Assembly: GCF_000014585.1 (NCBI RefSeq)
Contig: NC_008319.1
Coordinates: 2,294,001 to 2,358,000 of the forward strand
From: Synechococcus sp. CC9311
Lineage (GTDB): Bacteria; Cyanobacteriota; Cyanobacteriia; PCC-6307; Cyanobiaceae
Reading direction: 5' to 3'
DNA: 64,000 nucleotides
In this document: one piece after another, positions 44,922-56,127 of the stretch
How positions within the stretch are numbered: the stretch's first letter is position 1
How the letters are laid out: every line of letters starts with the position of its first letter
Notes under the pieces: generated by a model
The model's input: only the letters and a program-made list of their open reading frames with translations
Databases searched by the model: none
Told to the model about the DNA's origin: nothing
Position numbers and translations under genes: made by a program

Positions 44922-45572
44922 TTGGACCGCAAGATCTTCTACGACTGCATTCGAGATGATCTGTTCAACGGGGTGCTGAGGCAGCAGAACGTGAATGGAA
45001 TGGAGGCCATCCTGAACTTCTGGGACGCTCCAGCCAACCCACCCACAGGCGCGTTCAAAACCAACTGGGACATCCGCTCAATCGGGTGGCTGGCTTACAT
45101 GCTCGCCACCACAAAACATGAAACAGCTTCCACGATGCAACCGATTGATGAATACGGAGATACAGCCTATTTCACACAGATGTACGAGAATCGCTCTGAC
45201 CTTGGCAATACTGAACCTGGTGATGGAGCCAGGTTTCATGGGCGAGGCTTTGTGCAGCTCACAGGCCGAACCAACTACACAAAAATGAGCGGCGTGGTGC
45301 AATCAATCTTCCCCGAAGCGCCTGATTTCACTGAACACCCAGATGCGGTTAAAGATGATCGCTATGCGGCAGTGATCATGTTTGACGGCATGTTTTGTGG
45401 AGTTTTCACAGGATGGGCTCTGAAGAACTTCATCGGAGATCCACACAAGGGGCAAATCGTGGACTACTTTCACGCCCGCAAAATCATCAACGGCATGGAC
45501 AAAGCCGATCTGATTGAAAGTTATGCCAAAAAATTCTCCGCCGCACTCGACAAGGCAGGTGCAAGCGCATGA
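44922..45572 (+). CDS. GH19-type lysozyme/chitinase-like protein
   Basis: A 216-residue single-domain protein with a clear GH19 core: ATTKHETASTMQPIDEYGD (first catalytic Glu near residue 66) and DGARFHGRGFVQLTGRTNY (about 103-120). Such domains occur in phage endolysins and bacterial muramidases or chitinases. No signal peptide is visible, so release would need lysis or another route. The start is TTG 44922 with an AAAGGGAAG Shine-Dalgarno upstream. It may be a prophage remnant or a toxin. A fragment of its 3' end is repeated at 56089-56121. Confidence 0.87.
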   Translation: MDRKIFYDCIRDDLFNGVLRQQNVNGMEAILNFWDAPANPPTGAFKTNWDIRSIGWLAYMLATTKHETASTMQPIDEYGDTAYFTQMYENRSDLGNTEPGDGARFHGRGFVQLTGRTNYTKMSGVVQSIFPEAPDFTEHPDAVKDDRYAAVIMFDGMFCGVFTGWALKNFIGDPHKGQIVDYFHARKIINGMDKADLIESYAKKFSAALDKAGASA

Positions 45573-46757
45573 TTAAAGCCTTATTTCCAGCAATGTCTTG
45601 ATTTCTGATGGTGTAAGCGCAATTGGATTATTGCGGTTGCTTGCTGCGCCAACGATTCGATCCAGATCTCCATGGGTGATGCCGTAGTCGCTCAAGCGAG
45701 GAATCTTGAGCTCATCCACCCATTGCCCCAGGCAGGCCGTGAGGTGATCCACTGCTGACGTGTTCTGAGTGAGGTGGCAGCCACCAGGCATCAAACGGCC
45801 AACACGGGCCATCCGTTCAACCGCAGGATTGTGGGGATCGCGTTGTTTTAGAGCACGCCAATTTTGTTGTTGAGCTGCAGCCATCAACGTTCCGCAAATC
45901 ACGCCGTGGGGCATCGGGAACCAACCCCCAATCGGCCCCGCCAACCCATGAACAATTCCCAGGCCGGCATTTGCCAATCCGATCCCTGAACAGAGAGAGC
46001 CATAGGCCATGTTCAGGCGAACTTGCGGGTCGGCTGATCCCTCTCCACAGGCACGACGCAAATTCGGCACTAAATGTTGAAGCCCGCTCCAGACAATCGC
46101 ATCACTCAGAGGTGATGCCGTTGGGGAGAAAAAGGGCTCAAGAAGCTGCGTGAAGGCATCCATCCCGCACGCTGCCGTCACATCGACAGCGGCACCGGTC
46201 AGGAGAGCCCCGTCCAAGATCACTGCGCTTGGAACAAAGTTGTCATGGCGCAACGACTTTTTGTAGCCATCAGTGCCCACATGGCTCAGCACTGCATTTT
46301 TAGACACTTCTCCACCCGTTCCTGATGTGGTGGGTATCGCAAGAAAAGGCAGGGTGATTCCGCTATGAGCCAGACCACGGCCAACCCCCTCCAGGTGATC
46401 CAGCACAGAGTTTCCATGGGGAATCATCGCGGCAATCGCTTTGCCGAAATCGATCACGCTGCCGCCGCCGATGCCAATCACAGCATCAATGCCATGGTTA
46501 AAAAACTGCTGCGTGGTTCGATCCACCAGCTCTGTACTGGGTTCACCAGCACACACCACATGGTCATGCTTGGCTGCGGCATCAGCGATCAAGCTCGTCA
46601 CCACGCTCAGCTGCCCCATCTCCTCCAGCGAAGCCCGGCCTGTGACCAGAAGAACAGATTCAGCTTTAAGTGAGCGCAGCCAGGCTGTGATCTCTTTCAG
46701 CGTTCCGGTTCCGCAGTGAATCGGTGGGACGCGCGCAAAAGAAAACGAGACCGTCAT
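45573..46757 (-). CDS. Iron-containing alcohol dehydrogenase family protein
   Basis: A 394-residue group III ADH. It has the nucleotide-binding IGIGGGSVIDFGKAIA, PTTSGTGGEVSKNAVL, CGMDAFTQLLEPFFSP and HGLAGPIGGWFPMPHGVICG. In the metal site the Asp and both later His residues are present, while the second canonical ligand (His in MDALTH) is Gln (MDAFTQ); this variant is seen in one branch of the family. Substrate unknown. The start overlaps the monooxygenase stop by 4 nt; the stop abuts the convergent lysozyme gene. Confidence 0.88.
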   Translation of the reverse strand: MTVSFSFARVPPIHCGTGTLKEITAWLRSLKAESVLLVTGRASLEEMGQLSVVTSLIADAAAKHDHVVCAGEPSTELVDRTTQQFFNHGIDAVIGIGGGSVIDFGKAIAAMIPHGNSVLDHLEGVGRGLAHSGITLPFLAIPTTSGTGGEVSKNAVLSHVGTDGYKKSLRHDNFVPSAVILDGALLTGAAVDVTAACGMDAFTQLLEPFFSPTASPLSDAIVWSGLQHLVPNLRRACGEGSADPQVRLNMAYGSLCSGIGLANAGLGIVHGLAGPIGGWFPMPHGVICGTLMAAAQQQNWRALKQRDPHNPAVERMARVGRLMPGGCHLTQNTSAVDHLTACLGQWVDELKIPRLSDYGITHGDLDRIVGAASNRNNPIALTPSEIKTLLEIRL

Positions 46758-47044
46758 GGTGCAACGGATTCGTAGGGAACCCCCTTCCGCGGTTCAGCCA
46801 TCCAATCCGCGACGGTTTCCCTCCACTTGAGGTAATGCGCTGTGCTCTTGTGGGCTGCAGCTGCGGCCTCGGATTCGTACGCCTCGTACAGCAAAAAAAG
46901 ACTGGAGTCGTCTTTGCTTTGGAGGATGTCAAAGCGTTGATTGCCAGATTCCTGGATGGATTGCTTGTGATTCAGGATGGAGGCCTGACGAAACTCCTCG
47001 ATCCGTTCGGGTTTCACGCGGACGTGAACGCAGGTGACGTACAT
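46754..47044 (-). CDS. Antibiotic-biosynthesis-monooxygenase fold protein (LsrG/YgiN-like)
   Basis: A 96-residue ABM-domain protein from ATG 47044. The order MYVTCVHVRVKPERIEEF, then NQRFDILQSKDDSSLFLLYEAY, AAHKSTAHYLKWRE and EPRKG closely follows E. coli LsrG, an isomerase in autoinducer-2 breakdown, and YgiN-type quinol monooxygenases. Which reaction occurs here is not clear. It is upstream of and overlaps the Fe-ADH gene by 4 nt, so the two probably act together on a small carbonyl compound. Its 5' part is duplicated at 55947-56086. Confidence 0.85.
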   Translation of the reverse strand: MYVTCVHVRVKPERIEEFRQASILNHKQSIQESGNQRFDILQSKDDSSLFLLYEAYESEAAAAAHKSTAHYLKWRETVADWMAEPRKGVPYESVAP

Positions 47045-47058
47045 CGAAGACCTGTGTA

Positions 47059-47253
47059 ATGGTGACTTCCAATCCAACCATCCAGCGAGCAGGCTTCCTT
47101 GCGGCCACACAGGCCTCAGTGAAGTTCAGTTGCCCATTGCATCTCGACCCATTGGATATCAGGGCCTTGGCGCCTGATCATCCACAACGAGAGTTGCTGG
47201 AACGAATGCTCAGCTCCAGCCAGCGGCTGCGCGTGAGCGGCGAACTGGCGTGA
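47059..47253 (+). CDS. Possible small hypothetical protein
   Basis: A 64-residue open frame divergent from the monooxygenase gene (14-nt gap). The second half LDPLDIRALAPDHPQRELLERML looks protein-like with a helix-forming end, but no domain is recognised. It could also be the decayed end of another gene, since the next 130 nt contain a pseudogene remnant. Confidence 0.3.
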   Translation: MVTSNPTIQRAGFLAATQASVKFSCPLHLDPLDIRALAPDHPQRELLERMLSSSQRLRVSGELA

Positions 47254-47305
47254 AGGGGTGATGTGCGCTCGTCAATGGAAGTGAGCGTGAGGCCGGAGGC
47301 TGTAT

Positions 47306-47382
47306 TGGAGGAAGCGCTCTGGCGATTGACGGCCGTCGCACAGCGAGGCGGAGATGCTCAGTTTCGAGGAGATGAAAACACT
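47306..47382 (+). pseudogene. Remnant of an isocitrate lyase/PEP mutase family gene
   Basis: Positions 47306-47324 are identical (19 of 19 nt) to 58439-58457, and 47352-47382 match 58724-58754 (29 of 31 nt by hand), both inside the intact gene at 57913-58797 and in the same order and orientation. The roughly 266 nt between them in the intact gene are replaced here by 27 nt. This is a small internally deleted copy, without coding capacity. Confidence 0.7.
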
Positions 47383-47493
47383 CGAAAACTTTGAGAACAA
47401 TTCAACAACCACCGAGCAATCCTTAAATATCAACCGTTGAGACTGCAAACAAGAGAAAGTGATCAAGAGGAATCAAGGCACTCTCATAGACAA

Positions 47494-49308
47494 TTACACA
47501 GAATCACCATCAGAAGGTGCAGAAAAGAGGGCAGACTTTTGGGCTTGATTTCCCAAGAGATCACAATAATCGGCAAATTCCAATGGCCTGGAGAAATAAT
47601 ATCCCTGGAAGAATTGGTAGCCCATACGGCGAAGGGCATCGAACTGACGGAAATCCTCAACCCCTTCAACAATCGCTTCAGCACCAATCGACGAAGACAG
47701 AGCAAGGCTCGCCTTCAAAATAGCAAAAGAGGGAACAGATTCAAGGTTGCTGGAATCAAAAGAATGAAGCTGAGCAACAAAGCTCTGATCCAACTTCAAA
47801 GAATAGATCGGCAAAGAAAGAAGACTTGAAAGGCTTGCAAAACCTGTTCCAAAATCGTCGATATGAAGACAGATACCTGCCTCATGAAGGCCATTCAGCC
47901 GACGAATAGCAAGGTCGTCTAAGAATCCAGATTCTGTAATCTCTACATGGATAGATTTAGGCGAGACCCGAAAACGTTGCAGATTCACCAACAATGTTTC
48001 CACGAGATCATACTGCCGAGAAGAAAGCTGACTGGCCGAAATATTAATTGACAGCGGAGGTATTTTATCAACACCTCTATGGAACGAAGAAAGAGCGCGG
48101 CAAGCAGCTTCTATGACCCACTCACCAATTAAATGGATTTGACCAGTTTGCTCAGCAAGTGGAATAAAAACTCCCGGACTGACAGGGCCAAGTCTTGCGC
48201 TATCCCAGCGTAATAAAGCCTCAGCACCAACAATCTGCCCTGAGACATTCCATTGTGGCTGGAAAACAAGTCGAAATTCATCATTGACAACAGCTTGACG
48301 CAGGCTGAGTTCAAGATTCAATAATTCGGCCGTTCTCGTTGTAATGTCGTCTCCAAAGATGACAATTGGTTCTGATACAGAATTAATTCGCCGTGCCTGA
48401 TCCAAGGCAGATGCTGCATTGGAAAGGATGGAATCTTCATTGTCTCCATGGTCCGGAAATGAACTGATGCCTGCGTGAAAACCGAGACCATAAAAACCAT
48501 CAACATGCAATTCCAATAGAGATGGCAAATGCTCGACAAGATGAAGAGCAGCAGAATGCGCAGCCTTGGAATCGCGTCCATTTAAAATAATCAGAAACTC
48601 GTCAGAGTCAGGCCTAATTAAATAGTCACCATCCTGAAGCCAATCCTTTAAAACGTCGGCAGTGGCACGTAGAATTTCGTCACCCTTTGCTCGGCCAAGA
48701 TAAGTATTGAGGCGACCAAAACCCTTCAAATCGAGCCATACAAGAGAAACAGGCAACCCAGTGGAGATAATATCTTTCAAGAGTGCATAGGCACTTTTTA
48801 AATTCCCCAAACCAGTAAGCTGATCACACAAGAGACTTGACTGCAGTGAAAGCGATGACTTCTGTTGAACATCGACATTAACCATTAGTCCCTCGCAGAT
48901 CAGGAGATCTTTCTGGCGAGTAACAGTCATCCTCACCTCGTACCACGACCAACGACCCTCGGGAGAAACACCACGAAATGGCCGGCTAGTGATGTCATTA
49001 CCAAAACCATCACTTTCCAACAGCCGCTGAGCAACACTAGACATATATTCCCGATCGTCTGGATGTACATCTTGTAAAAATGATTGCAAGAGAAAGAGCG
49101 CAGAACCTGACTCCAATATTTCCGGGGACGTAAACTGACAATGAATATAATCATCCGACTTGAAGTATTCCTGCATTGCCTCACCCTCAGGAGACAGAGG
49201 GAATCGAAAGAATTCCACACCAGCGCGCCTAAGCAAATCAACCACATCAGAGCGAATCGGAAGACGATCTGTCGAAAGATGATTTTTTGGCCGCTCAGAA
49301 TAAGTCAT
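47494..49308 (-). CDS. PAS-like/GGDEF/EAL cyclic-di-GMP protein
   Basis: A 604-residue signalling protein: an N-terminal PAS-like region (about 15-150), a GGDEF domain (about 160-320) and an EAL domain (about 345-595). The GGDEF signature is degenerate (IRPDSDEFLII, about residue 232), so diguanylate cyclase activity is doubtful. The EAL domain looks intact: GAEALLRWD, NISASQLS, HVEITESGF, HIDDFGTGFASL and LKLDQSFV; a phosphodiesterase is therefore expected. It starts 20 nt after the P450 stop and is the last gene of the minus-strand cluster, with A+T-rich composition like its neighbours. Confidence 0.88.
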   Translation of the reverse strand: MTYSERPKNHLSTDRLPIRSDVVDLLRRAGVEFFRFPLSPEGEAMQEYFKSDDYIHCQFTSPEILESGSALFLLQSFLQDVHPDDREYMSSVAQRLLESDGFGNDITSRPFRGVSPEGRWSWYEVRMTVTRQKDLLICEGLMVNVDVQQKSSLSLQSSLLCDQLTGLGNLKSAYALLKDIISTGLPVSLVWLDLKGFGRLNTYLGRAKGDEILRATADVLKDWLQDGDYLIRPDSDEFLIILNGRDSKAAHSAALHLVEHLPSLLELHVDGFYGLGFHAGISSFPDHGDNEDSILSNAASALDQARRINSVSEPIVIFGDDITTRTAELLNLELSLRQAVVNDEFRLVFQPQWNVSGQIVGAEALLRWDSARLGPVSPGVFIPLAEQTGQIHLIGEWVIEAACRALSSFHRGVDKIPPLSINISASQLSSRQYDLVETLLVNLQRFRVSPKSIHVEITESGFLDDLAIRRLNGLHEAGICLHIDDFGTGFASLSSLLSLPIYSLKLDQSFVAQLHSFDSSNLESVPSFAILKASLALSSSIGAEAIVEGVEDFRQFDALRRMGYQFFQGYYFSRPLEFADYCDLLGNQAQKSALFSAPSDGDSV

Positions 49309-49328
49309 TGCAGAAAAATCGGTTTCAC

Positions 49329-51242
49329 TTAATCAGCAGAGCCACGGGGGCGGACAAGCACATCAAATCCCGAAACCATGATTCCATGTTTTACGGGATA
49401 TCCACGCGCACCAGGGATCCTAAACAACTCATAACGAGAGAGAAGTTCCTGAACAATAGCCGGTATGACTGACATAACAATGTATTTACCAGCACAAACA
49501 TGATACATATGGCCAAAGTGCAAGTAATCTCTGGGTGGCCTAGTTGGATTGAATTGCCACGGTTGATCCACATATTTTGGATCAAACATCGCAGAAGAAT
49601 TCCAGGCCATCACCAGAGTATTTGCTGAGACCGATGAGCGGCAAGAAGCACTCACCAACTCAGTTCGCGTCTTGCAGTGACGATAAATCACAGGATCACC
49701 TGGGGAAAATCGAAGTGCCTCCAACACAAATCCTTGTAACGGATTCAAAAACGATTGCCCCCCCTCCGTCGCAGACGTAGCAGTGCTTACAGCTTGTTCA
49801 AGAATGCGAGGACGAGAGATCAACTCGTCAATGACCTGGCATATCGTATTGATCAAGGGCAGGACTGCTCCAACAAGAAATCCCGTCAGGTTGATCCGAA
49901 TTGCAAGATCATCCATGCCTGGGGTACCGGACTCTTGGAGCCTGAGGCACCGAGCAAGCACGGTATTGGCAGGCTCTAAGTGTTTACTGGATTGTTGCTT
50001 TACAGCAGCGATCTGACGATCAAGATCCTGATTCAGCAAGACTGCAGAAGCCAAGGCAGCCTCACGACTATCGTCACCATTAAGGTCGTAAAAAATATAG
50101 TTGAAGAGATGTGAGAACCAAACAAAGTTGAAATCGATCTCGGTTGTTCCGTCGGCATTCTCAGCCTGAAGCGGAAGACGTACACCGAAATATTGTTCAA
50201 TAAATGATTTAATAACAGGTAGAACAAGATCTTTTGGCAAACTCAAAACCTTCGAGCCATCGAGATCGCGAAGAACATCGACTCGCGATTCGAATGCAAG
50301 AAAACTATCAACAGATGCATCGGCAGCAATCCTGCGACATCGATGCACATCATCGCGACGAAAAATTAATCTCATATTAGAAATATCACGGATATAGGTT
50401 GGTGATGTGGATTGCATGCCAAGAAGAAAATTTCCAGATGAATGACCGTTCTGCGTGACATCACACATTCTCGGTCCATAAACAACGCGAAAATCCTCGG
50501 AACGTTCCAACACTTCTTCCACATCGTGTCGCTTCAAGAGATGAAGTTGTCGCATGACAGGAAACTCATCACCATGACTGTTTTCCTTGATGTTGACGCC
50601 TGGAAACCATGCGGGCAGAGTAAAGCGATGTACAAATAGACGCATCATCGATAAGAAAAAATAAACCGTGATGTGCTTATTTTTTATGACCAACAACCGC
50701 TGCAGCAGAGAAGGATAAAATGCTGTTTTTCTGTAGTGTTTACTTTCAGTAAGTGGATCCGGGCCAAAAACACCGTTAATGCCTAGTGAGCGAATCCAAT
50801 CAATAGGGAGCAACAAGACTTCCTTGACAAAACGAGCAAAAATAGAAACCAGGGTAAAGCTCGTATCGGAACGATAGCTGAATTCACGATTGATACGAAA
50901 ACGGGGATTTACCCAAAACAACTCAGACAGCAAATCGCCTACGAAGCGAAGCACGCGTACAACAAATTCGATCAACTGCAGACTATACAAAAACAGCATG
51001 CGCAACGAACGCACGAAAAAATAGAGAAGTACCGCCGCAAACAAAACAAACTCATAATGCGACAACAATGCATCAAGAAAAGGTTCGGTTCGTTGACCAG
51101 ATAACTCAATCCATTTTCCAACACTCCCCAAAGCGACATCTACAAATGAGGACAGATCCTCTGAGATCGTGAGGAAAAGAATGGTGAAAGATGGCACCAA
51201 CACGAAAGCAAGAGAGTGAATCGGATAACTAGCCATGAACAT
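49329..51242 (-). CDS. Membrane-anchored cytochrome P450
   Basis: A 637-residue heme-thiolate protein. The N-terminus has hydrophobic segments (about 5-25 and 62-100) and the P450 domain fills the rest. The ExxR motif is EALR (about 508-511) and the heme loop is YLHFGHMYHVCAGKYI, with Cys about 583. In the I-helix (about 454-466) the sequence is GFLVGAVLPLINT, lacking the usual (A/G)Gx(D/E)T acid-alcohol pair used for O2 activation. P450s that isomerise hydroperoxides (CYP74, fungal diol-synthase P450 domains) also depart from this motif. The start overlaps the DyP stop by 1 nt (ATGA). Confidence 0.87.
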   Translation of the reverse strand: MFMASYPIHSLAFVLVPSFTILFLTISEDLSSFVDVALGSVGKWIELSGQRTEPFLDALLSHYEFVLFAAVLLYFFVRSLRMLFLYSLQLIEFVVRVLRFVGDLLSELFWVNPRFRINREFSYRSDTSFTLVSIFARFVKEVLLLPIDWIRSLGINGVFGPDPLTESKHYRKTAFYPSLLQRLLVIKNKHITVYFFLSMMRLFVHRFTLPAWFPGVNIKENSHGDEFPVMRQLHLLKRHDVEEVLERSEDFRVVYGPRMCDVTQNGHSSGNFLLGMQSTSPTYIRDISNMRLIFRRDDVHRCRRIAADASVDSFLAFESRVDVLRDLDGSKVLSLPKDLVLPVIKSFIEQYFGVRLPLQAENADGTTEIDFNFVWFSHLFNYIFYDLNGDDSREAALASAVLLNQDLDRQIAAVKQQSSKHLEPANTVLARCLRLQESGTPGMDDLAIRINLTGFLVGAVLPLINTICQVIDELISRPRILEQAVSTATSATEGGQSFLNPLQGFVLEALRFSPGDPVIYRHCKTRTELVSASCRSSVSANTLVMAWNSSAMFDPKYVDQPWQFNPTRPPRDYLHFGHMYHVCAGKYIVMSVIPAIVQELLSRYELFRIPGARGYPVKHGIMVSGFDVLVRPRGSAD

Positions 51243-53152
51243 CAGAAACGGTTCTCAGCTAACAAGCGGATCGCTGAAAGGCTCGGTACAAAGAAATAAG
51301 CTCCACCTCTACACACAACTGGCTGTGGTGAAGTTCTGGCAACAAAAGGAAGCGAGCATGAACCATCTGGCCGTTCAGACGAGATCATCACTTTTGTACT
51401 ATTCCTGTCACTCACATCAGAAGGATGGAGTGCTCCAGCGATAGGACAGATGTCATTACCTAAATTGAAATCAGATCCATAGTTCAACCACTGCTGCTGC
51501 ATAAACTCAAACTGTCTTGCAAGATCTGCACAAATAGCGACAAAAAAAGTACCTCGTTCTGAATCAGCTGGAGTGGATTGATCATGATCAATGGGATTCT
51601 CGTGCTTCAGCTCCGAAGGTGGTCCATAGGTCATACCACGCCTTAATATCCGTCGTCGATTCACAAGCAGAGAGCTTGCTTGAGATGTTTCTGACGGATC
51701 AGAATCATTGCGCACTGAAGGATCACCACTATCTCGAGGATTACTCCGACGTATATGTGAGGCAAATGGGCACCTTCTGCCTTTTGTATCATCAGACTCA
51801 AAGGTAAAGCGAGTAAATTTAGTTTTGAATTGTTTCCAAGCTTCTTTTGCAGCAGGTCCACCCTTTCTAGCCTCGCCTGCCAATGTCAGAAGACGTTCTC
51901 GAAAGCTCAGCCATAGTTCATACGTTGGAGCATGCACTAAAGGCGTGCCATCATCCCAACGCCCAACAAGTTTCGCACGAAGAATTTTTAACGCTTTGGT
52001 GAATTGATAAGTAGTGGAAGGCTGCTTAGAAGATGTAGAGCATTCAACCTGATCAAGCCAATGCTCCATCAATGGAGTCTGATTCAGCAAGGCGTTATGA
52101 AACGCGGTGACATTCTGCTCTAATTTACGAACAGCCATGAATGTTCCATTTCTGCTGAAGGTATAGGGCATTGGATGGCACGTGGTTTCCTGAGCTTCAT
52201 TGGGATAACCCAAGAGGAATTCTCCTGGGGCGATTGGTCTCCACTGACCACAAGAAAGATGACCTTGCCCTTGTGCCATCTCAGCTTGAAAAGAAGCTGG
52301 GTATTGACCATTAAAAACAGGATCTCCAATTCCATCAAAGAATCCAAAGTGTTCATATTCGCTATATCGCAAATCTGTAAGATCTGCTGATGATGCAACA
52401 TGCCGGCGCTTCTTTTGGTTATCTAAATCAGCTAAATACTGATCTTCACTGATGCCGGCAATTGCAAGATCCTGGAGTCGCGAGTGGCACAATGATTCAC
52501 ACTCAAGCCATTTCGATTCAGGATCAGCACTGGAGTGTCCTGTCAAAGCAACCAAACTGTGCCGTTCAGCCTGTTCCAGTAAGTGCCTGGACACTTGATC
52601 CAGATTTTCAATCATCATGGATCGGGCTAACTTAAAAGTCTCTTGAGAGTGATAATCAGACTTCGAGAAGGAATCACCACTACGCAGACAGACCTCTTTC
52701 AAACAAGAATTAAATGCAACACGCAAGCTGATCATTATATGAGTAATTTTATCGTGCTCACTATCTTTCCAGGCGTTATTCCAATCGAGTCGATTATCAT
52801 TCAACATTTCAGCTCTTTCCCACATTCCATCTAAGAAAGCATCTGGGAATTGACGAAGCACTGAATTGGGAACTCCTAGAGCATTAAGGCCAGATGCAGT
52901 AAAAGCAATATTAAGCAGAACCTCTGGAATATCCTTTCTCAGCTGATCCGCAGGAATCTGCATTTGATCAGATCGCTTTGACGGGAAAAATTGAGCTGTC
53001 GTGATTTGAGGCTGAATCCAACTCAGAAATTTTCGAGCTTCGTCTTGATCACGAACATTAAAAATGAAGTGACGTGCAACAGGGTAGGAAGATCGACCAT
53101 AGGGGAGCAAGATATTTCCCTGGATATCAAGACGATCAAAAATTAGTGTCAT
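51242..53152 (-). CDS. DyP-type heme peroxidase
   Basis: A 636-residue dye-decolorizing peroxidase. It begins DRLDIQGNILLPYGR; the distal GxxDG motif with catalytic Asp is HFGFFDGIGDPVF (about residue 268-275), the proximal heme-ligand region is ASHIRRSNPRDSGD (about 463-475), followed by RRILRRGMTYG with the conserved Arg, and ADLARQFEFMQQQWLNYG. All key residues are present, so it should be active with H2O2. No signal peptide is evident. It is longer than the common 300-450 residues, matching the long DyP subclasses. It is preceded by two unknown genes and followed by the P450. Confidence 0.92.
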   Translation of the reverse strand: MTLIFDRLDIQGNILLPYGRSSYPVARHFIFNVRDQDEARKFLSWIQPQITTAQFFPSKRSDQMQIPADQLRKDIPEVLLNIAFTASGLNALGVPNSVLRQFPDAFLDGMWERAEMLNDNRLDWNNAWKDSEHDKITHIMISLRVAFNSCLKEVCLRSGDSFSKSDYHSQETFKLARSMMIENLDQVSRHLLEQAERHSLVALTGHSSADPESKWLECESLCHSRLQDLAIAGISEDQYLADLDNQKKRRHVASSADLTDLRYSEYEHFGFFDGIGDPVFNGQYPASFQAEMAQGQGHLSCGQWRPIAPGEFLLGYPNEAQETTCHPMPYTFSRNGTFMAVRKLEQNVTAFHNALLNQTPLMEHWLDQVECSTSSKQPSTTYQFTKALKILRAKLVGRWDDGTPLVHAPTYELWLSFRERLLTLAGEARKGGPAAKEAWKQFKTKFTRFTFESDDTKGRRCPFASHIRRSNPRDSGDPSVRNDSDPSETSQASSLLVNRRRILRRGMTYGPPSELKHENPIDHDQSTPADSERGTFFVAICADLARQFEFMQQQWLNYGSDFNLGNDICPIAGALHPSDVSDRNSTKVMISSERPDGSCSLPFVARTSPQPVVCRGGAYFFVPSLSAIRLLAENRF

Positions 53153-53156
53153 GGCG

Positions 53157-54332
53157 TTAACGGATAGAAAAATATTTGCCAGGTTGCAAGGAAGGGGAGT
53201 GAATATCGGAAGGCTTGTGGTCGTCTAAAAAACTTGAAAAGCGCTGGCGAATTCTGCCCTTATCAAACCGATCGCTTTCCTGCCAATCGCCATACATTTC
53301 AAGAAGCTTTCCTTGAAGATACAATGATTTTGCAATTGACTTTAAATCAACACCATCAATTTGAGGCAGAGGCATATTTGCACTCTTGATAAAATAACGC
53401 CATGCAAACATAAATAAAACCAAGGATGCGACAGAGAGCCCGCCAAAACCTATGAGCCACCATTGATTCAATGCTTGGTAAACATCACTCAGATTCACTT
53501 GCGATAATGCTGTGTCATATAAAAGATTCAAGAACAAACTTCCTAAACAAATAGCCAGCATGAGAAGAGCCATAACAACTAAAATGAAGGGCAAAATTCC
53601 TATAATGATCAGAGCCCATCGATTTTTAAATTCAGAAGGTGATACTTGATCTGTTGATGGGTTCCAACGTTGCACTTTGTCGGCAACCCAAAAGTAGGCA
53701 GAAAATGGATATGTCGTCTCAACTTCATGAGACAGGAGCAATCGCTCTACCGTGTGATAAGCATGCCAATACTGAGGATATGACTCCAAAGTCTTCTGAT
53801 TTTGAGGAGGAGATGGAAGAGAAAATCCCTCACAATGATGAAAAATTTTAGTCAACTCATAGCTCGCGTAGGGCCATAACTCAGATAAATAGTCTTGGAC
53901 ACACGACGTCGAACTGGGATGACAATCGAAATCAATAGCTATTAGGAGATAGGGCGACTCAAGTTTGTCGATTCTGTCTTTTTTTGAGAGAAGATCCTTA
54001 TTTCCAAGCAAAACCCTAAAAAAATCAATCAGGGAGTCATTCCTGCGGCGACCATTGTAGAAGAGCTGATCAACAACAACGAATCTGGCAAAATGTGTAC
54101 AGCGCGTATGATCAAATAAATGCAACTTATACAATTCTGACAGCTGAGGATCAATATTTTTCAGGAACGAATCAGATAGTTGATTCAAATAGGCTTTAAG
54201 GTGATGAGCATACGATTGAGTACCATCACACGGGCCAGAAACATTCTCTTGGCATGGCAAACTAGTATATAGACCAGACTTGATCGGCAACAATGCCGTC
54301 AACTGATAAAACCCTGCCTCATGGCTCGGCAT
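53157..54332 (-). CDS. Membrane protein of unknown function associated with DyP peroxidase
   Basis: A 391-residue protein. The soluble N-terminal part starts with YQLTALLPIKSGLYTSL and contains THFARFVVVDQLFYNG followed by SPYLLIAIDFDCHPSS and DYLSELWPY. The same order, xHFARxVV then YLL(x)3-4(N/D)F(N/D), occurs in the 218-residue protein upstream. Two strong membrane helices are at about 243-275 and 294-316. I recognise no catalytic site. I infer a ferredoxin-like fold related to the DyP and Cld group, but this needs a structure prediction. It lies 4 nt before the DyP start. Confidence 0.7.
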   Translation of the reverse strand: MPSHEAGFYQLTALLPIKSGLYTSLPCQENVSGPCDGTQSYAHHLKAYLNQLSDSFLKNIDPQLSELYKLHLFDHTRCTHFARFVVVDQLFYNGRRRNDSLIDFFRVLLGNKDLLSKKDRIDKLESPYLLIAIDFDCHPSSTSCVQDYLSELWPYASYELTKIFHHCEGFSLPSPPQNQKTLESYPQYWHAYHTVERLLLSHEVETTYPFSAYFWVADKVQRWNPSTDQVSPSEFKNRWALIIIGILPFILVVMALLMLAICLGSLFLNLLYDTALSQVNLSDVYQALNQWWLIGFGGLSVASLVLFMFAWRYFIKSANMPLPQIDGVDLKSIAKSLYLQGKLLEMYGDWQESDRFDKGRIRQRFSSFLDDHKPSDIHSPSLQPGKYFSIR

Positions 54333-54333
54333 A

Positions 54334-54990
54334 TTAAAGACTCTCCGTTGAAAATTGAGTTAGAGAGTTGTCGAGTGAGTGCGGAGGTGGCTTACCGGTG
54401 GAAGGGAAATGATTGGCCAAATTCGCCATGACAGACTGAAAGTGTTGAAAAAACAAATCATCCTTCGTTGCATCAGTCTTATCTTGATCTGTATTAATGT
54501 CAGACAGCTGCTCCTCTAAATAATTAATTGCCTTGCGTACTCTCAAGGCACTAGCAACATCTCGCAGCGAATATCCCGGAAGGGCGTTGTAATAGTAAGA
54601 ACACTCTATTGAATTGTCGTCGATGTAAGATTTGAATGGGCTGCTTGGGATCGACTTTGGATAGCCAATACTGCGATACCACATGGTGTCCATCCCCAAT
54701 GAGATCACATCCGAAAACTCATCCAAATAGACATCCCAGGTCCCATTGAAATTTGAGGCAAACAAAAGGTACGAATAACGCGTTTTAAACTTTTCGGAGC
54801 ACCCGGGCCATCGATCCTTCGGCAAAATCACCCATCTTGCAAAATGGATCATTTGAAGATTCACCAGCGGGAAAAACTGAGCAGGAAGGGATCGATATAA
54901 AGCAAACAAAAAACGGTTAATCCAAGAACACCACAGCGGGGTAACGACCGTCAAGGCAGATGATTTACCAACGATGTCGCCTAATGGCAT
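54334..54990 (-). CDS. Protein of unknown function, first gene of the DyP/P450 cluster
   Basis: About 218 residues from ATG 54990 (a TTG at 55002 in frame is an alternative). Contains MIHFARWVILPKDRW then YSYLLFASNFNGTWDVYLDEF, quoted in part as LLFASNFNGTWDVYLDEF, a pattern shared with the 391-residue protein that follows 1 nt later. The C-terminus is Asp/Lys-rich and then Pro/Ser-rich. No signal peptide or catalytic motif. Likely a partner of the peroxidase; function unknown. Confidence 0.7.
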   Translation of the reverse strand: MPLGDIVGKSSALTVVTPLWCSWINRFLFALYRSLPAQFFPLVNLQMIHFARWVILPKDRWPGCSEKFKTRYSYLLFASNFNGTWDVYLDEFSDVISLGMDTMWYRSIGYPKSIPSSPFKSYIDDNSIECSYYYNALPGYSLRDVASALRVRKAINYLEEQLSDINTDQDKTDATKDDLFFQHFQSVMANLANHFPSTGKPPPHSLDNSLTQFSTESL

Positions 54991-55005
54991 GCCAACAAGC
55001 AAGAG

Positions 55006-55026
55006 TCCTTAAATGGAATTTAAGGA
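55006..55026. repeat. Perfect inverted repeat upstream of the DyP/P450 cluster
   Basis: TCCTTAAAT-GGA-ATTTAAGGA: 9-bp arms with a 3-nt spacer. On the minus strand the proximal arm ends AAGGA, which is also the likely Shine-Dalgarno of the first gene. It could be an operator or an mRNA hairpin that hides the ribosome site. Confidence 0.6.
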
Positions 55027-55108
55027 ACACCGAGAAAAACACAACATTTGCTCATTAAAACTACAAGATTAATATTTGCTGAGAATAGACTTAAAACCTG
55101 GTGAAGCA

Positions 55109-55138
55109 CATATAGCAAATCAGTCGACGTACTGTTAA
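55109..55138 (-). promoter_or_regulatory. Candidate sigma70-type promoter for the DyP/P450 cluster
   Basis: On the minus strand TTAACA is followed after 18 nt by TATATG, five of six and four of six matches to the -35 and -10 consensus. It lies about 110 nt upstream of the first gene. Such matches arise by chance in A+T-rich DNA, so this is weak. Confidence 0.25.
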
Positions 55139-55468
55139 GACGTAGTTTTATCAACATTGCAGAGGACCTTGCCTCAATAGACAATCAAGTTTTTGAATGC
55201 ATTTACAGTCCTAAATTGACTAGCGACAAGGATGATGCGATCTCTGTGCTGGGAAGGCGAATGTCCGTTCCAAGTAACGAATAGATGCCATGGAGCACGA
55301 TTTACATCTTTGTGCTCTTATTGATTTCTGGCTATCAGGCCCGTGATCCATGACTAAGATTTGGACGTCCAAGCCTACGTAGCATGCACCACAAAAAATT
55401 CTGAATCTGCTCGGAGGTCGTTGCCGGAAACCTCCAATCAATCGTTCAATTGTTCAGAAAGCATTCAA

Positions 55469-55801
55469 ATGAAAGTTATTCACCTAGCGATCGCCACCAA
55501 TGAAATAGAAAAAAGTGTAAGAGATTACACAGAAAGGCTGGGCGTAGAGCAAAGCATTGTTGTTCCAGATGAATATGCATTATGGAGAACAGAGCAAATC
55601 AATTTATCAATAAGGCAAGACGCTAGCTGCAATCCAGGCGAGCTAAGGCATCTTGGCTTTGAAGATTCAAATGCAAAAGCTTTTACAGCATCAAAGGATG
55701 TTAACGGGATTCTTTGGGAGTCATTTAACGCAGAGCAACAAGCAGAAGAGATAAATAAAGCCTGGCCAAACGCAAACTATCAGCCAAGCGAAGCTGGTTA
55801 A
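55469..55801 (+). CDS. VOC/glyoxalase-fold protein
   Basis: A 110-residue single-module protein: VIHLAIATNEIEKSVRDYTERLG is the typical first strand-helix unit (part: IHLAIATNEIEKSVRDY), with a metal-type His at the start and RHLGFED later. VOC proteins include glyoxalases, dioxygenases and resistance proteins; at this size it would act as a dimer. ATG 55469 is chosen since it begins directly with the fold. Low-G+C like the cluster to its left. Substrate unknown. Confidence 0.75.
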   Translation: MKVIHLAIATNEIEKSVRDYTERLGVEQSIVVPDEYALWRTEQINLSIRQDASCNPGELRHLGFEDSNAKAFTASKDVNGILWESFNAEQQAEEINKAWPNANYQPSEAG

Positions 55802-55946
55802 ATATTATTTCTTGCCCATGCGACCGGCGAGTAGCGTATAAGTTGCCAAGAATCTCAAATTAAACAAACGCATGCATAGGGACTAATTTCTGATAGAAAA
55901 ACTAACGACTGGATCGATATCACTTGAACAATTTGCACCCGGCTGA

Positions 55947-56086
55947 GATGTCAAAGCATTGATTGCCAGGTTTCTGTATGGATTCCTCTTGATTGAGGAT
56001 GGAGGTCTGAGGAAACTCCCCAATCCGTTCGGATTTCAAGTGGACGTGAACGCAGGTGACGTACATCGAAGACCTATGCAACGGTG
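55947..56086 (-). pseudogene. Truncated duplicate of the ABM/LsrG-like gene 5' end
   Basis: These 140 nt align without gaps to 46925-47064, about 122 of 140 identical by hand count, including a 34-nt perfect block and about 20 nt upstream of the start codon. The copy keeps the frame MYVTCVHVHLKSERIGEF for about 40 codons and then diverges, so it lacks more than half the domain. Confidence 0.85.
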
Positions 56087-56088
56087 GA

Positions 56089-56121
56089 ATCATCAACGGC
56101 ATGGACAACTCGACAAGGCAG
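56089..56121 (+). pseudogene. Fragment of the GH19 lysozyme 3' end
   Basis: 19 nt (56089-56107) are identical to 45483-45501 and the next 14 nt (56108-56121) to 45545-45558, so a 43-nt stretch is deleted between them. It directly follows the monooxygenase fragment and overlaps nothing functional before the hydrolase stop at 56128. Confidence 0.65.
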
Positions 56122-56127
56122 CCCCCC

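What the first reader, a model, noticed from the sequence alone, without database searches (positions are those of the whole stretch)
47494..54990. Compact DyP peroxidase - P450 - c-di-GMP gene cluster with two unknown partners
Five minus-strand genes with gaps of 1, 4, -1 and 20 nt encode two related unknown proteins, a complete DyP-type peroxidase, a membrane P450 and a GGDEF/EAL protein, in A+T-rich DNA set in a G+C-richer genome. Pairing a peroxidase with a P450 is the logic of fungal psi-factor/diol synthases (a heme peroxidase domain fused to a P450), where the peroxidase makes a hydroperoxide and the P450 rearranges it. Here the peroxidase is of a different family and the parts are separate genes. 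The sequence shows the gene order and motifs; the oxylipin-like function is inference.
Basis: partly seen in the sequence, partly recalled or inferred. Interest (0 to 1): 0.85.

Follow-up and report, generated by a model that had tools for sequence, protein, structure and literature searches.

The report
Bacterial peroxidase–P450 lipid-signal gene cassette
A tightly packed set of bacterial genes pairs a peroxidase with a P450 and an unnamed partner protein, recurs in distant bacteria even fused into one giant protein, and probably makes oxidised-lipid signals much as animals and fungi do but from unrelated enzymes; no experiment has yet shown this.

Summary
It is not a local accident. The unnamed protein U1 and its distant relative U2 belong to a domain family not found in Pfam or NCBIfam. 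In 66 of 66 loci read, a DyP peroxidase lies in the same cluster. A P450 is there in 41, a catalase-like heme protein in 15, both in none, neither in 10 (Fisher p about 1e-6 after de-replication). Ten of the 66 loci encode P450, U2-like, U1 and DyP as one polypeptide of 1408-1535 residues. Some operons add a patatin phospholipase, FadL, or a cyclic-nucleotide or c-di-GMP enzyme. The closest P450s found outside this family sit beside COX-like peroxidases (rhizobia) or a RoxA-like diheme protein. Most likely it oxygenates a lipid and rearranges the hydroperoxide: the logic of COX/P450 or fungal DOX-P450, built from other families. Pairing is shown; substrate, product and the role of U1/U2 are inferred. 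Structure predictions of U1 and U2 failed (pLDDT 44 and 49).

The parts
54334..54990 (-). U1: partner protein of an unnamed family, 218 aa; core motif HFARWV..LLFxSNFNGTWDxYxDxF
   Evidence: of 31 members scanned none has an NCBIfam match and one has a chance-like Pfam match (DOG1, 7.7e-4); dN/dS 0.05-0.11
53157..54332 (-). U2: distant relative of U1 plus two hydrophobic segments, 391 aa
   Evidence: no Pfam family over its cut-off; dN/dS 0.13-0.19
51242..53152 (-). DyP-type peroxidase, 636 aa, catalytic Asp, His and Arg motifs present
49329..51242 (-). Membrane-anchored cytochrome P450, 637 aa; ExxR and Cys loop intact; I-helix VGAVLPLINT lacks the acid-Thr pair
47494..49308 (-). PAS-like-GGDEF-EAL protein, 604 aa; GGDEF motif degenerate (DSDEF), EAL motifs intact: probable c-di-GMP phosphodiesterase; a homologue follows the P450 in G006 and G296 too
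46925..47064 (+). Left copy of a 140-bp direct repeat (87% identical) that brackets the cluster; lies in the ABM-domain gene
55947..56086 (+). Right copy of the same direct repeat (ABM gene remnant)
45573..56127 (.). Insertion of about 10.5 kb (Fe-ADH, ABM, the five-gene cluster, VOC-like gene) between a GH19-like gene and a hydrolase-like gene that are 42 bp apart in relative G015

Best explanation
A conserved bacterial cassette for making an oxygenated lipid signal. The DyP heme peroxidase, working with the U1/U2 domain proteins, oxygenates an unsaturated lipid to a hydroperoxide (or otherwise supplies an organic peroxide). A P450 that lost the usual O2-activating I-helix acid rearranges that peroxide without redox partners. 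In sister clusters a catalase-like heme protein takes the P450's place. U2 (two hydrophobic segments) and the P450's N-terminal anchor hold the complex at the membrane. The adjacent second-messenger enzyme (here a c-di-GMP phosphodiesterase; elsewhere a class III cyclase or a GGDEF protein) ties production to, or reads it into, cell signalling. Shown: gene order, conservation, fusions, heme-site residues, mutual exclusion, co-located lipid genes in some clusters, low dN/dS. Inferred: lipid substrate, order of reactions, hydroperoxide intermediate, independence from redox partners, role of U1/U2, link to c-di-GMP.
For: (1) DyP lies in the same cluster in 66 of 66 loci, next to or fused with a U1-family gene in all but L123, where one gene lies between. 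In the evenly drawn Pseudomonadota set all 27 hit genomes of 398 were read: DyP 27, P450 17 (G813 by a weak match), catalase-like 7, neither 3. (2) P450-U2like-U1-DyP as one polypeptide in 10 of 66 loci, plus Novosphingobium aromaticivorans pNL2 and Sulfitobacter pontiacus. (3) P450 41, catalase-like 15, both 0, neither 10 (p 1.2e-8; 1.1e-6 to 7.8e-6 de-replicated); a further locus read last (L152) has U1, DyP and catalase-like, no P450; one DyP-catalase-like fusion (L125). P450s of the CYP74 clan and catalase-related hemoproteins are two known alternatives for fatty-acid hydroperoxides (PMC10813956, passages). (4) Lipid genes inside operons: patatin in 4 loci of the Sphingomonas order; U1-U2-DyP-patatin-P450-FadL in 2 near-identical loci. 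(5) The nearest outside P450s found adjoin COX-like peroxidases (phmmer best PGHS-2, 4.7e-57; YRWH in the two looked at) or a RoxA-like diheme protein, the group of P. aeruginosa 10S-DOX (PMC4496055 passages); they score 1e-83 to 1e-97 against the cluster P450 profile, six ordinary P450s 1e-33 to 1e-41. (6) I-helix acid absent in 41 of 42 rows; present in 5 of 6 ordinary controls, two of which are near-identical. (7) Class III cyclase domains found with profiles grown from two cluster cyclases: 13 in all loci, 12 within 300 bp of the cluster, all 12 beside P450-type clusters, 0 in 660,522 flank bases beyond 1.5 kb.
Against: No substrate or product is known; DyPs are not established fatty-acid dioxygenases (recalled). 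By sequence the P450 lies nearest ordinary bacterial CYPs in solved structures; none of the 30 hits at E 1e-10 is labelled CYP74 or CYP152. The COX- and RoxA-linked P450s whose I-helix I read (R. etli, Bradyrhizobium) keep the E-T pair, so loss of the acid is not needed beside a COX-type partner, and one ordinary control (L140) lacks it too. Patatin or FadL occur in only 6 of 66 loci, none in the cyanobacterial clusters. 10 of 66 loci have neither P450 nor catalase-like gene in the stretch read, and 25 of 66 work without a P450 there. Single loci have other metabolic neighbours: CoA-transferase (L064), ketoacyl synthase III (L054), acyl-CoA dehydrogenase (L136). The relation of U1-linked to COX-linked P450s is unresolved in the tree. 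U1 and U2 models are too poor to use, and U1-U2 kinship is weak without bridging sequences.
Confidence: 0.52

Rival explanations
1. A biosynthetic module for a non-lipid metabolite: DyP oxidises a small aromatic or other substrate with H2O2, and the P450 acts as a peroxide-driven tailoring enzyme. U1 and U2 are substrate-handling partners.
For: DyPs usually take aromatic substrates (recalled); several clusters lie on plasmids or in an insertion; the P450 resembles bacterial CYPs, some of them biosynthetic (PikC, erythromycin hydroxylase).
Against: No typical biosynthetic family is among the six neighbour families shared by 3 or more of the 30 loci compared (cyclase-AAA, patatin, cyclase/regulator-TPR, histidine kinase, GGDEF; one ABC-ATPase-like by my reading); patatin and FadL appear inside operons; the swap of P450 for a catalase-like protein points to peroxide chemistry.
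Confidence: 0.2
2. A peroxide-defence module: DyP with a catalase-like protein or P450 removes H2O2 or lipid peroxides formed by stress; no signal is made.
For: Peroxidase and catalase-like proteins together in 15 of 66 loci; KatG gene about 4 kb from the Granulicella cluster.
Against: P450 and catalase-like protein exclude each other rather than add up; the distal His seems replaced by Asn in some of the catalase-like proteins (read: L063, L102, L112); adjacency of nucleotide cyclases; covalent fusion of all parts.
Confidence: 0.13
3. A catabolic module that opens a hydrophobic compound (terpenoid, alkane, rubber-like or aromatic), with FadL/TodX as its importer and P450 as an ordinary monooxygenase.
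For: FadL/TodX family also takes up hydrocarbons (recalled); a RoxA-like protein beside a related P450; Fe-ADH near the window cluster; acyl-CoA genes near single loci (L064, L136).
Against: No catabolic family is among the six neighbour families shared by 3 or more of 30 loci; I-helix acid missing; Fe-ADH not found in the stretches L003 and L061.
Confidence: 0.1
4. Chance neighbours on an A+T-rich genomic island without a shared function.
For: Low G+C, insertion with flanking repeats, 2 of 31 genomes of the genus, own genome included.
Against: Same set in distant phyla and as single polypeptides; low dN/dS.
Confidence: 0.01

Closest known systems
Fungal DOX-CYP (psi-factor producing oxygenase / linoleate diol synthase)
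   Same: Heme peroxidase coupled to a P450, fused in one polypeptide in 10 of 66 relatives; likely hydroperoxide hand-over; HxC in the heme loop
   Different: Peroxidase is DyP, not the animal-type peroxidase; P450 domain lies at the N-terminus; extra U2-like and U1 domains; separate genes in the window; activity unknown
Animal COX plus prostacyclin/thromboxane synthase with phospholipase
   Same: Phospholipase, oxygenating peroxidase and P450 isomerase are mirrored by patatin, DyP and P450 in six loci
   Different: Peroxidase family, partner domains and fusion state all differ; products unknown
CYP74 clan and catalase-related allene oxide synthase / hydroperoxide lyase
   Same: P450 and catalase-like proteins replace each other; P450 lacks the I-helix acid
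   Different: P450 is not CYP74 by sequence and shows no extra residues in the heme loop; lipoxygenase is not among the recurrent neighbour families (not searched for on its own)
Pseudomonas aeruginosa oxylipin system (PA2077/PA2078 diheme proteins)
   Same: A bacterial oxylipin system tied to motility and biofilm; a RoxA-group protein adjoins a related P450 in Bradyrhizobium
   Different: Diheme cytochrome c enzymes; no DyP, U1/U2 or P450 is part of it (recalled)
Rhizobial P450 - COX-like peroxidase operons (R. etli, R. gallicum, S. medicae; seen here)
   Same: P450s are among the closest found outside the U1 family and sit next to a COX-like peroxidase
   Different: Other peroxidase family; the R. 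etli I-helix keeps E-T; no U1 or DyP in the roughly 9-kb stretches

Membership tests
DyP-type peroxidase superfamily | DyP domains with distal Asp (GxxDG), distal Arg and proximal His | tested here: met
   PF21105 and PF20628; all three motifs in the window protein; the Asp is kept in all aligned rows that reach it, some with A or S after it. The NCBIfam superfamily model is below its cut-off
Cytochrome P450 superfamily | ExxR and the Cys heme loop | tested here: met
   EALR and FGHMYHVCAG; PF00067 1.3e-9
Fungal DOX-CYP (Ppo/LDS) | Peroxidase of the animal-type/COX family (PF03098) | tested here: not met
   Window peroxidase hits only DyP families
Fungal DOX-CYP (Ppo/LDS) | Peroxidase and P450 in one polypeptide | tested here: inconclusive
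   Not in the window (separate genes); met in 10 of 66 relatives with the P450 first
Fungal DOX-CYP (Ppo/LDS) | Dioxygenation and isomerisation of C18 fatty acids | not testable with these tools
   Needs biochemistry
CYP74 clan | CYP74 sequence kinship and nine extra residues in the heme-binding domain (PMC10813956, passages) | tested here: not met
   None of the 30 solved-structure hits at 1e-10 is labelled CYP74; heme loop of the same length as in ordinary controls' kin
CYP152 peroxygenases | Sequence kinship to CYP152 | tested here: inconclusive
   None of the 30 hits is labelled CYP152; which entries are CYP152 is recalled, so a weak test
Classical P450 monooxygenase | I-helix (A/G)Gx(D/E)T acid-alcohol pair | tested here: not met
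   Window VGAVLPLINT; acid absent in 41 of 42 cluster rows, 4 of them unsure; one of six controls lacks it too
EAL c-di-GMP phosphodiesterase | EAL motif and DDFGTG loop | tested here: met
   GAEALLRW and DDFGTG; PF00563 8.6e-59
GGDEF diguanylate cyclase | Intact GG(D/E)EF motif | tested here: not met
   DSDEF in window and G006; no match to the motif pattern in G296
P. aeruginosa diheme oxylipin enzymes | Diheme cytochrome c (RoxA group) oxygenase | tested here: not met
   No cytochrome c family in the ten window proteins scanned

The most novel reading that the evidence does not exclude
A widespread bacterial lipid-mediator system that reinvented the eicosanoid/psi-factor logic from other enzyme families: an unnamed U1/U2 domain plus DyP makes the hydroperoxide, an acid-less P450 or, alternatively, a catalase-like protein converts it, and a co-located c-di-GMP or cyclic-nucleotide enzyme makes it a signal. 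It is fused into one 1.4-1.5-thousand-residue 'oxylipin synthase' in several lineages and moves between phyla, here into a picocyanobacterium.
Probability: 0.42. Interest if true: 0.92.

Novelty: categorically new. Interest (0 to 1): 0.82.

Why it matters
Bacterial oxylipin signalling is described mainly from P. aeruginosa (passages of PMC5155153), with a report in Xylella (search listing). A second, unrelated and apparently widespread system would show that coupling a peroxidase to a P450 for lipid signals was invented several times, would give DyP peroxidases, whose natural role is debated (recalled), a concrete physiological task, and would link lipid oxidation to second messengers. The single-polypeptide versions make the hypothesis directly testable with one purified protein.

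Tried and rejected
Chance neighbourhood: rejected by 66 of 66 loci with DyP and by fusions. Structure of U1 and U2: two AlphaFold jobs with only four sequences each gave pLDDT 43.6 and 49.0, so no fold search was made; a ferredoxin-like beta-alpha-beta-beta-alpha reading of U2 is only a hint. U1 as a DyP-derived half barrel: profile comparison gave nothing. U1 in known libraries: Pfam, NCBIfam, solved structures, nothing credible; PADLOC only a chance-level hit (BovA, 0.0024). CYP74 or CYP152 membership: not supported. Asn in the I-helix as in plant AOS, PGIS and LDS (PMC13049297, passages): many relatives read PTN and the window reads LIN, but the positions do not align and some rows lack it, so I do not rest on it. 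The Thr-His mark of catalase-related proteins was not used: L020 reads SVH, others vary. Promoter and terminator scan: no more than in shuffles. The second fusion order in L126 (U1-DyP-P450) is weak: P450 part E 1e-9 and no ExxR at the aligned place. SARP-like/OmpR-like TPR regulators beside 7 P450 loci came up with the cyclase-TPR proteins and were taken out of the cyclase count because their N-terminus does not align as a cyclase. Two further places of hit genomes were read last and are not in the counts: L152 (G679) agrees (U1, DyP, catalase-like), L153 (G943) holds only a short U1 fragment at a contig end with no partner in view. Literature: nine searches of an open-access library; 50, 55 and 99, which joined DyP with oxylipin or fatty acid hydroperoxide, returned 0 papers; one listed 5 and 111 listed 2, none opened; 51 and 110 listed 20 of 170 and 10 of 3,856. 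Nothing listed describes a DyP-P450-oxylipin system; subscription papers are not covered. Word searches inside three P450 surveys found 'peroxidase' and 'fused' 0 times each (PMC8197338, PMC7014017, PMC9148083).
Full report
WHAT IS THERE. The window lies in a 2.6-Mb single-contig genome, by its gene content a picocyanobacterium of the Synechococcus kind (my reading). They sit in 44.1% G+C DNA (window 55.0%). In relative G015 a GH19-like gene and a hydrolase-like gene are 42 bp apart; in the window about 10.5 kb lies between them, holding an Fe-ADH gene, an ABM-domain gene, the cluster and a VOC-like gene. A 140-bp direct repeat at 87% identity (part of the ABM gene and a remnant of it) brackets the cluster. 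In the genus 2 of 31 genomes, the window's own included, carry the DyP gene. All five genes show dN/dS of 0.05-0.22 against G006 and L003 (the fifth gene in L003 over 56 codons only), so they appear to be maintained.

A CONSERVED SYSTEM. I searched mainly with U1, not with DyP or P450, in order not to bias the neighbours. Hits: 5 of 386 cyanobacterial genomes, own included, 28 of 296 of the order of the Sphingomonas MAG, 27 of 398 Pseudomonadota drawn evenly, 15 plasmid records (of which I read 6 and left 9). With L003, L004 and L005 from a DyP search and overlaps removed this gives 66 loci from 65 genomes or records as far as the handles tell (G813 twice); the window is not counted, its close relative L006 is. 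Every hit genome was read at its best place; two second places (L152, L153) were read last and are not in the counts. Result: a DyP gene or domain in 66 of 66, next to or fused with a U1-family gene in all but L123; P450 in 41; a catalase-like protein in 15; both in 0; neither in 10, within stretches of mostly 18 kb. Fisher p is 1.2e-8, and 1.1e-6, 4.5e-6 and 7.8e-6 after grouping loci by DyP identity of 70, 60 and 50% (56, 50 and 32 groups). In the evenly drawn set alone (27 genomes): DyP 27, P450 17 (one of them, G813, by a weak match), catalase-like 7, neither 3. For comparison 115 of the same number of genomes, drawn the same way, have any Dyp_perox_C match, so DyP itself is far commoner than U1; that Pfam model recognises the U1-linked DyPs only weakly or not at all (G407 is listed without a match). 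Not every locus is clean: DyP is split in L016 and L056 and short in L062, and the P450s of L069, L121, L126 and L135 are very divergent. Of the late places, L152 has U1, DyP and a catalase-like gene; L153 has only a U1 fragment at a contig end.

FUSIONS. In ten loci (L019, L065, L101, L107, L109, L110, L118, L124, L127, L128) P450, a U2-like domain, U1 and DyP form one open frame of 1408-1535 residues in that order; N. aromaticivorans plasmid pNL2 and Sulfitobacter pontiacus have the same type. Five more loci fuse U1 domains with DyP (L016, L064, L068, L069, L135), and L125 fuses DyP with the catalase-like protein. So the window's four separate genes are the parts of one machine.

U1 AND U2. 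Profile comparison of four U1 with four U2 sequences is weak (probability 20, E 0.0012); with 31 U1-like rows, including bridging second copies, it is strong (probability 98, E 1.1e-13). None of the 31 has an NCBIfam match, one has a chance-like Pfam match, and no solved structure is a relative by sequence. Structure prediction failed. Their role is unknown. That every locus pairs them with DyP suggests that they serve the peroxidase, for example as substrate-presenting or electron-handling subunits (inference).

THE P450. Heme loop and ExxR are intact in the window protein. The I-helix acid of (A/G)Gx(D/E)T is missing in 41 of 42 aligned cluster P450s, often with Pro in its place (GFVPT); L068 alone keeps it, and four rows align unsurely. 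Five of six ordinary P450s used as controls have E-T-T (two of them near-identical); L140 does not. By sequence the nearest solved structures are ordinary bacterial P450s. The nearest P450s without a U1 neighbour in the plasmid collection (40 of 108 records listed) adjoin COX-like peroxidases in R. etli, R. gallicum and S. medicae and a RoxA-like diheme cytochrome in Bradyrhizobium; no U1 or DyP was found in those stretches. P. aeruginosa 10S-DOX belongs to the RoxA group (PMC4496055, passages). These four P450s form one clade (100/98), the six controls another (100/99); the deeper order is unresolved. Against the cluster profile they score 1e-83 to 1e-97, the controls 1e-33 to 1e-41. Against a simple story, the R. 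etli and Bradyrhizobium P450s keep E-T.

CONTEXT. Four loci of the Sphingomonas order (L057-L060) carry a patatin phospholipase gene directly before P450-U1-U1'-DyP, three of them also a GGDEF gene, of the 7TM-DISM type in L059. L114 and the near-identical L115 read U1-U2-DyP-patatin-P450-FadL with overlaps or tiny gaps. Class III cyclase domains, sought with profiles grown from two cluster cyclases, occur 13 times in all loci: 12 within 300 bp of the cluster, all 12 beside P450-type clusters, one at 1.1 kb beside a catalase-type cluster, none in 660,522 bases of flank beyond 1.5 kb. GGDEF genes lie within 1 kb of 6 of 41 P450 clusters, and one lies 5.6 kb from a catalase-type cluster. The order P450-GGDEF/EAL recurs in G006 and G296, and L003 ends inside such a gene. 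The window's protein has a degenerate GGDEF (DSDEF) and intact EAL motifs. The window genome has three EAL proteins, and 5 of 31 genomes of the genus have any over the cut-off, so EAL enzymes are scarce in this genus.

MECHANISM. Most likely, DyP with U1/U2 oxygenates an unsaturated lipid, the membrane-held P450 isomerises the hydroperoxide, and the c-di-GMP phosphodiesterase couples it to lifestyle control. The exchange of P450 for a catalase-like protein matches two known enzyme kinds for fatty-acid hydroperoxides (PMC10813956, passages). In P. aeruginosa oxylipins change motility and promote biofilm (PMC5155153, passages), a natural meeting point with c-di-GMP. Steps not shown: substrate, whether DyP makes or uses a peroxide, products, direction of signalling.

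KNOWN OR NEW. It works like, but is not, fungal DOX-CYP: the peroxidase family differs. It is not CYP74 by sequence, nor the P. aeruginosa diheme system. Nine literature searches in an open-access library listed no description; long lists were seen only in part and no hit of 101 or 111 was opened. I rate it categorically new as a system because its core partner domain has no name and its set of parts matches no described system I could find, while its supposed chemistry resembles known chemistry.

Noticed in passing
L139:3938-6840, L147:3944-6861, L146:3983-6897: Rhizobial operons of a P450 and a COX-like peroxidase (YRWH motif in L139 and L147; best solved relative of L139 is PGHS-2, 4.7e-57): a possible bacterial COX-P450 pair.
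   Followed up: partly
L138:1880-5239: Bradyrhizobium plasmid: a RoxA-like diheme cytochrome gene directly before a P450 of the same kin; RoxA-group proteins include P. aeruginosa 10S-DOX.
   Followed up: partly
L125:9688-12390: 900-aa fusion of a DyP with a catalase-like protein, next to a two-U1-domain protein.
   Followed up: no
L063:494-1678, L102:5347-6618, L112:10833-12029: Catalase-like proteins beside U1-DyP in which the usual distal His seems replaced by Asn (GNTK), while others keep HAK.
   Followed up: no
window 46925-47064 and 55947-56086; 45482-45502 and 56088-56108: Direct repeats (140 bp at 87%, 21 bp perfect) bracket the cluster and the insertion, suggesting entry or duplication by recombination; G006 keeps a shorter trace.
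   Followed up: partly
L003:26-472: Contig binned as a proteobacterium carries the window-type cluster (68-86% identity) and an ORF ending in an ArgS-like C-terminus: probably a mis-binned cyanobacterial contig.
   Followed up: partly
L065:4782-6485, L118:4158-5909, L124:5453-7114, L133:11434-13071: TPR regulators beside P450 clusters share a C-terminal part but swap the N-terminus: class III cyclase in some loci (L019, L101, L109), SARP-like or OmpR-like DNA-binding domain (my reading) in these.
   Followed up: partly
window 45573-47110: Fe-ADH and ABM-domain (LsrG-like) genes overlap by 4 nt inside the same insertion and are kept in G006.
   Followed up: no
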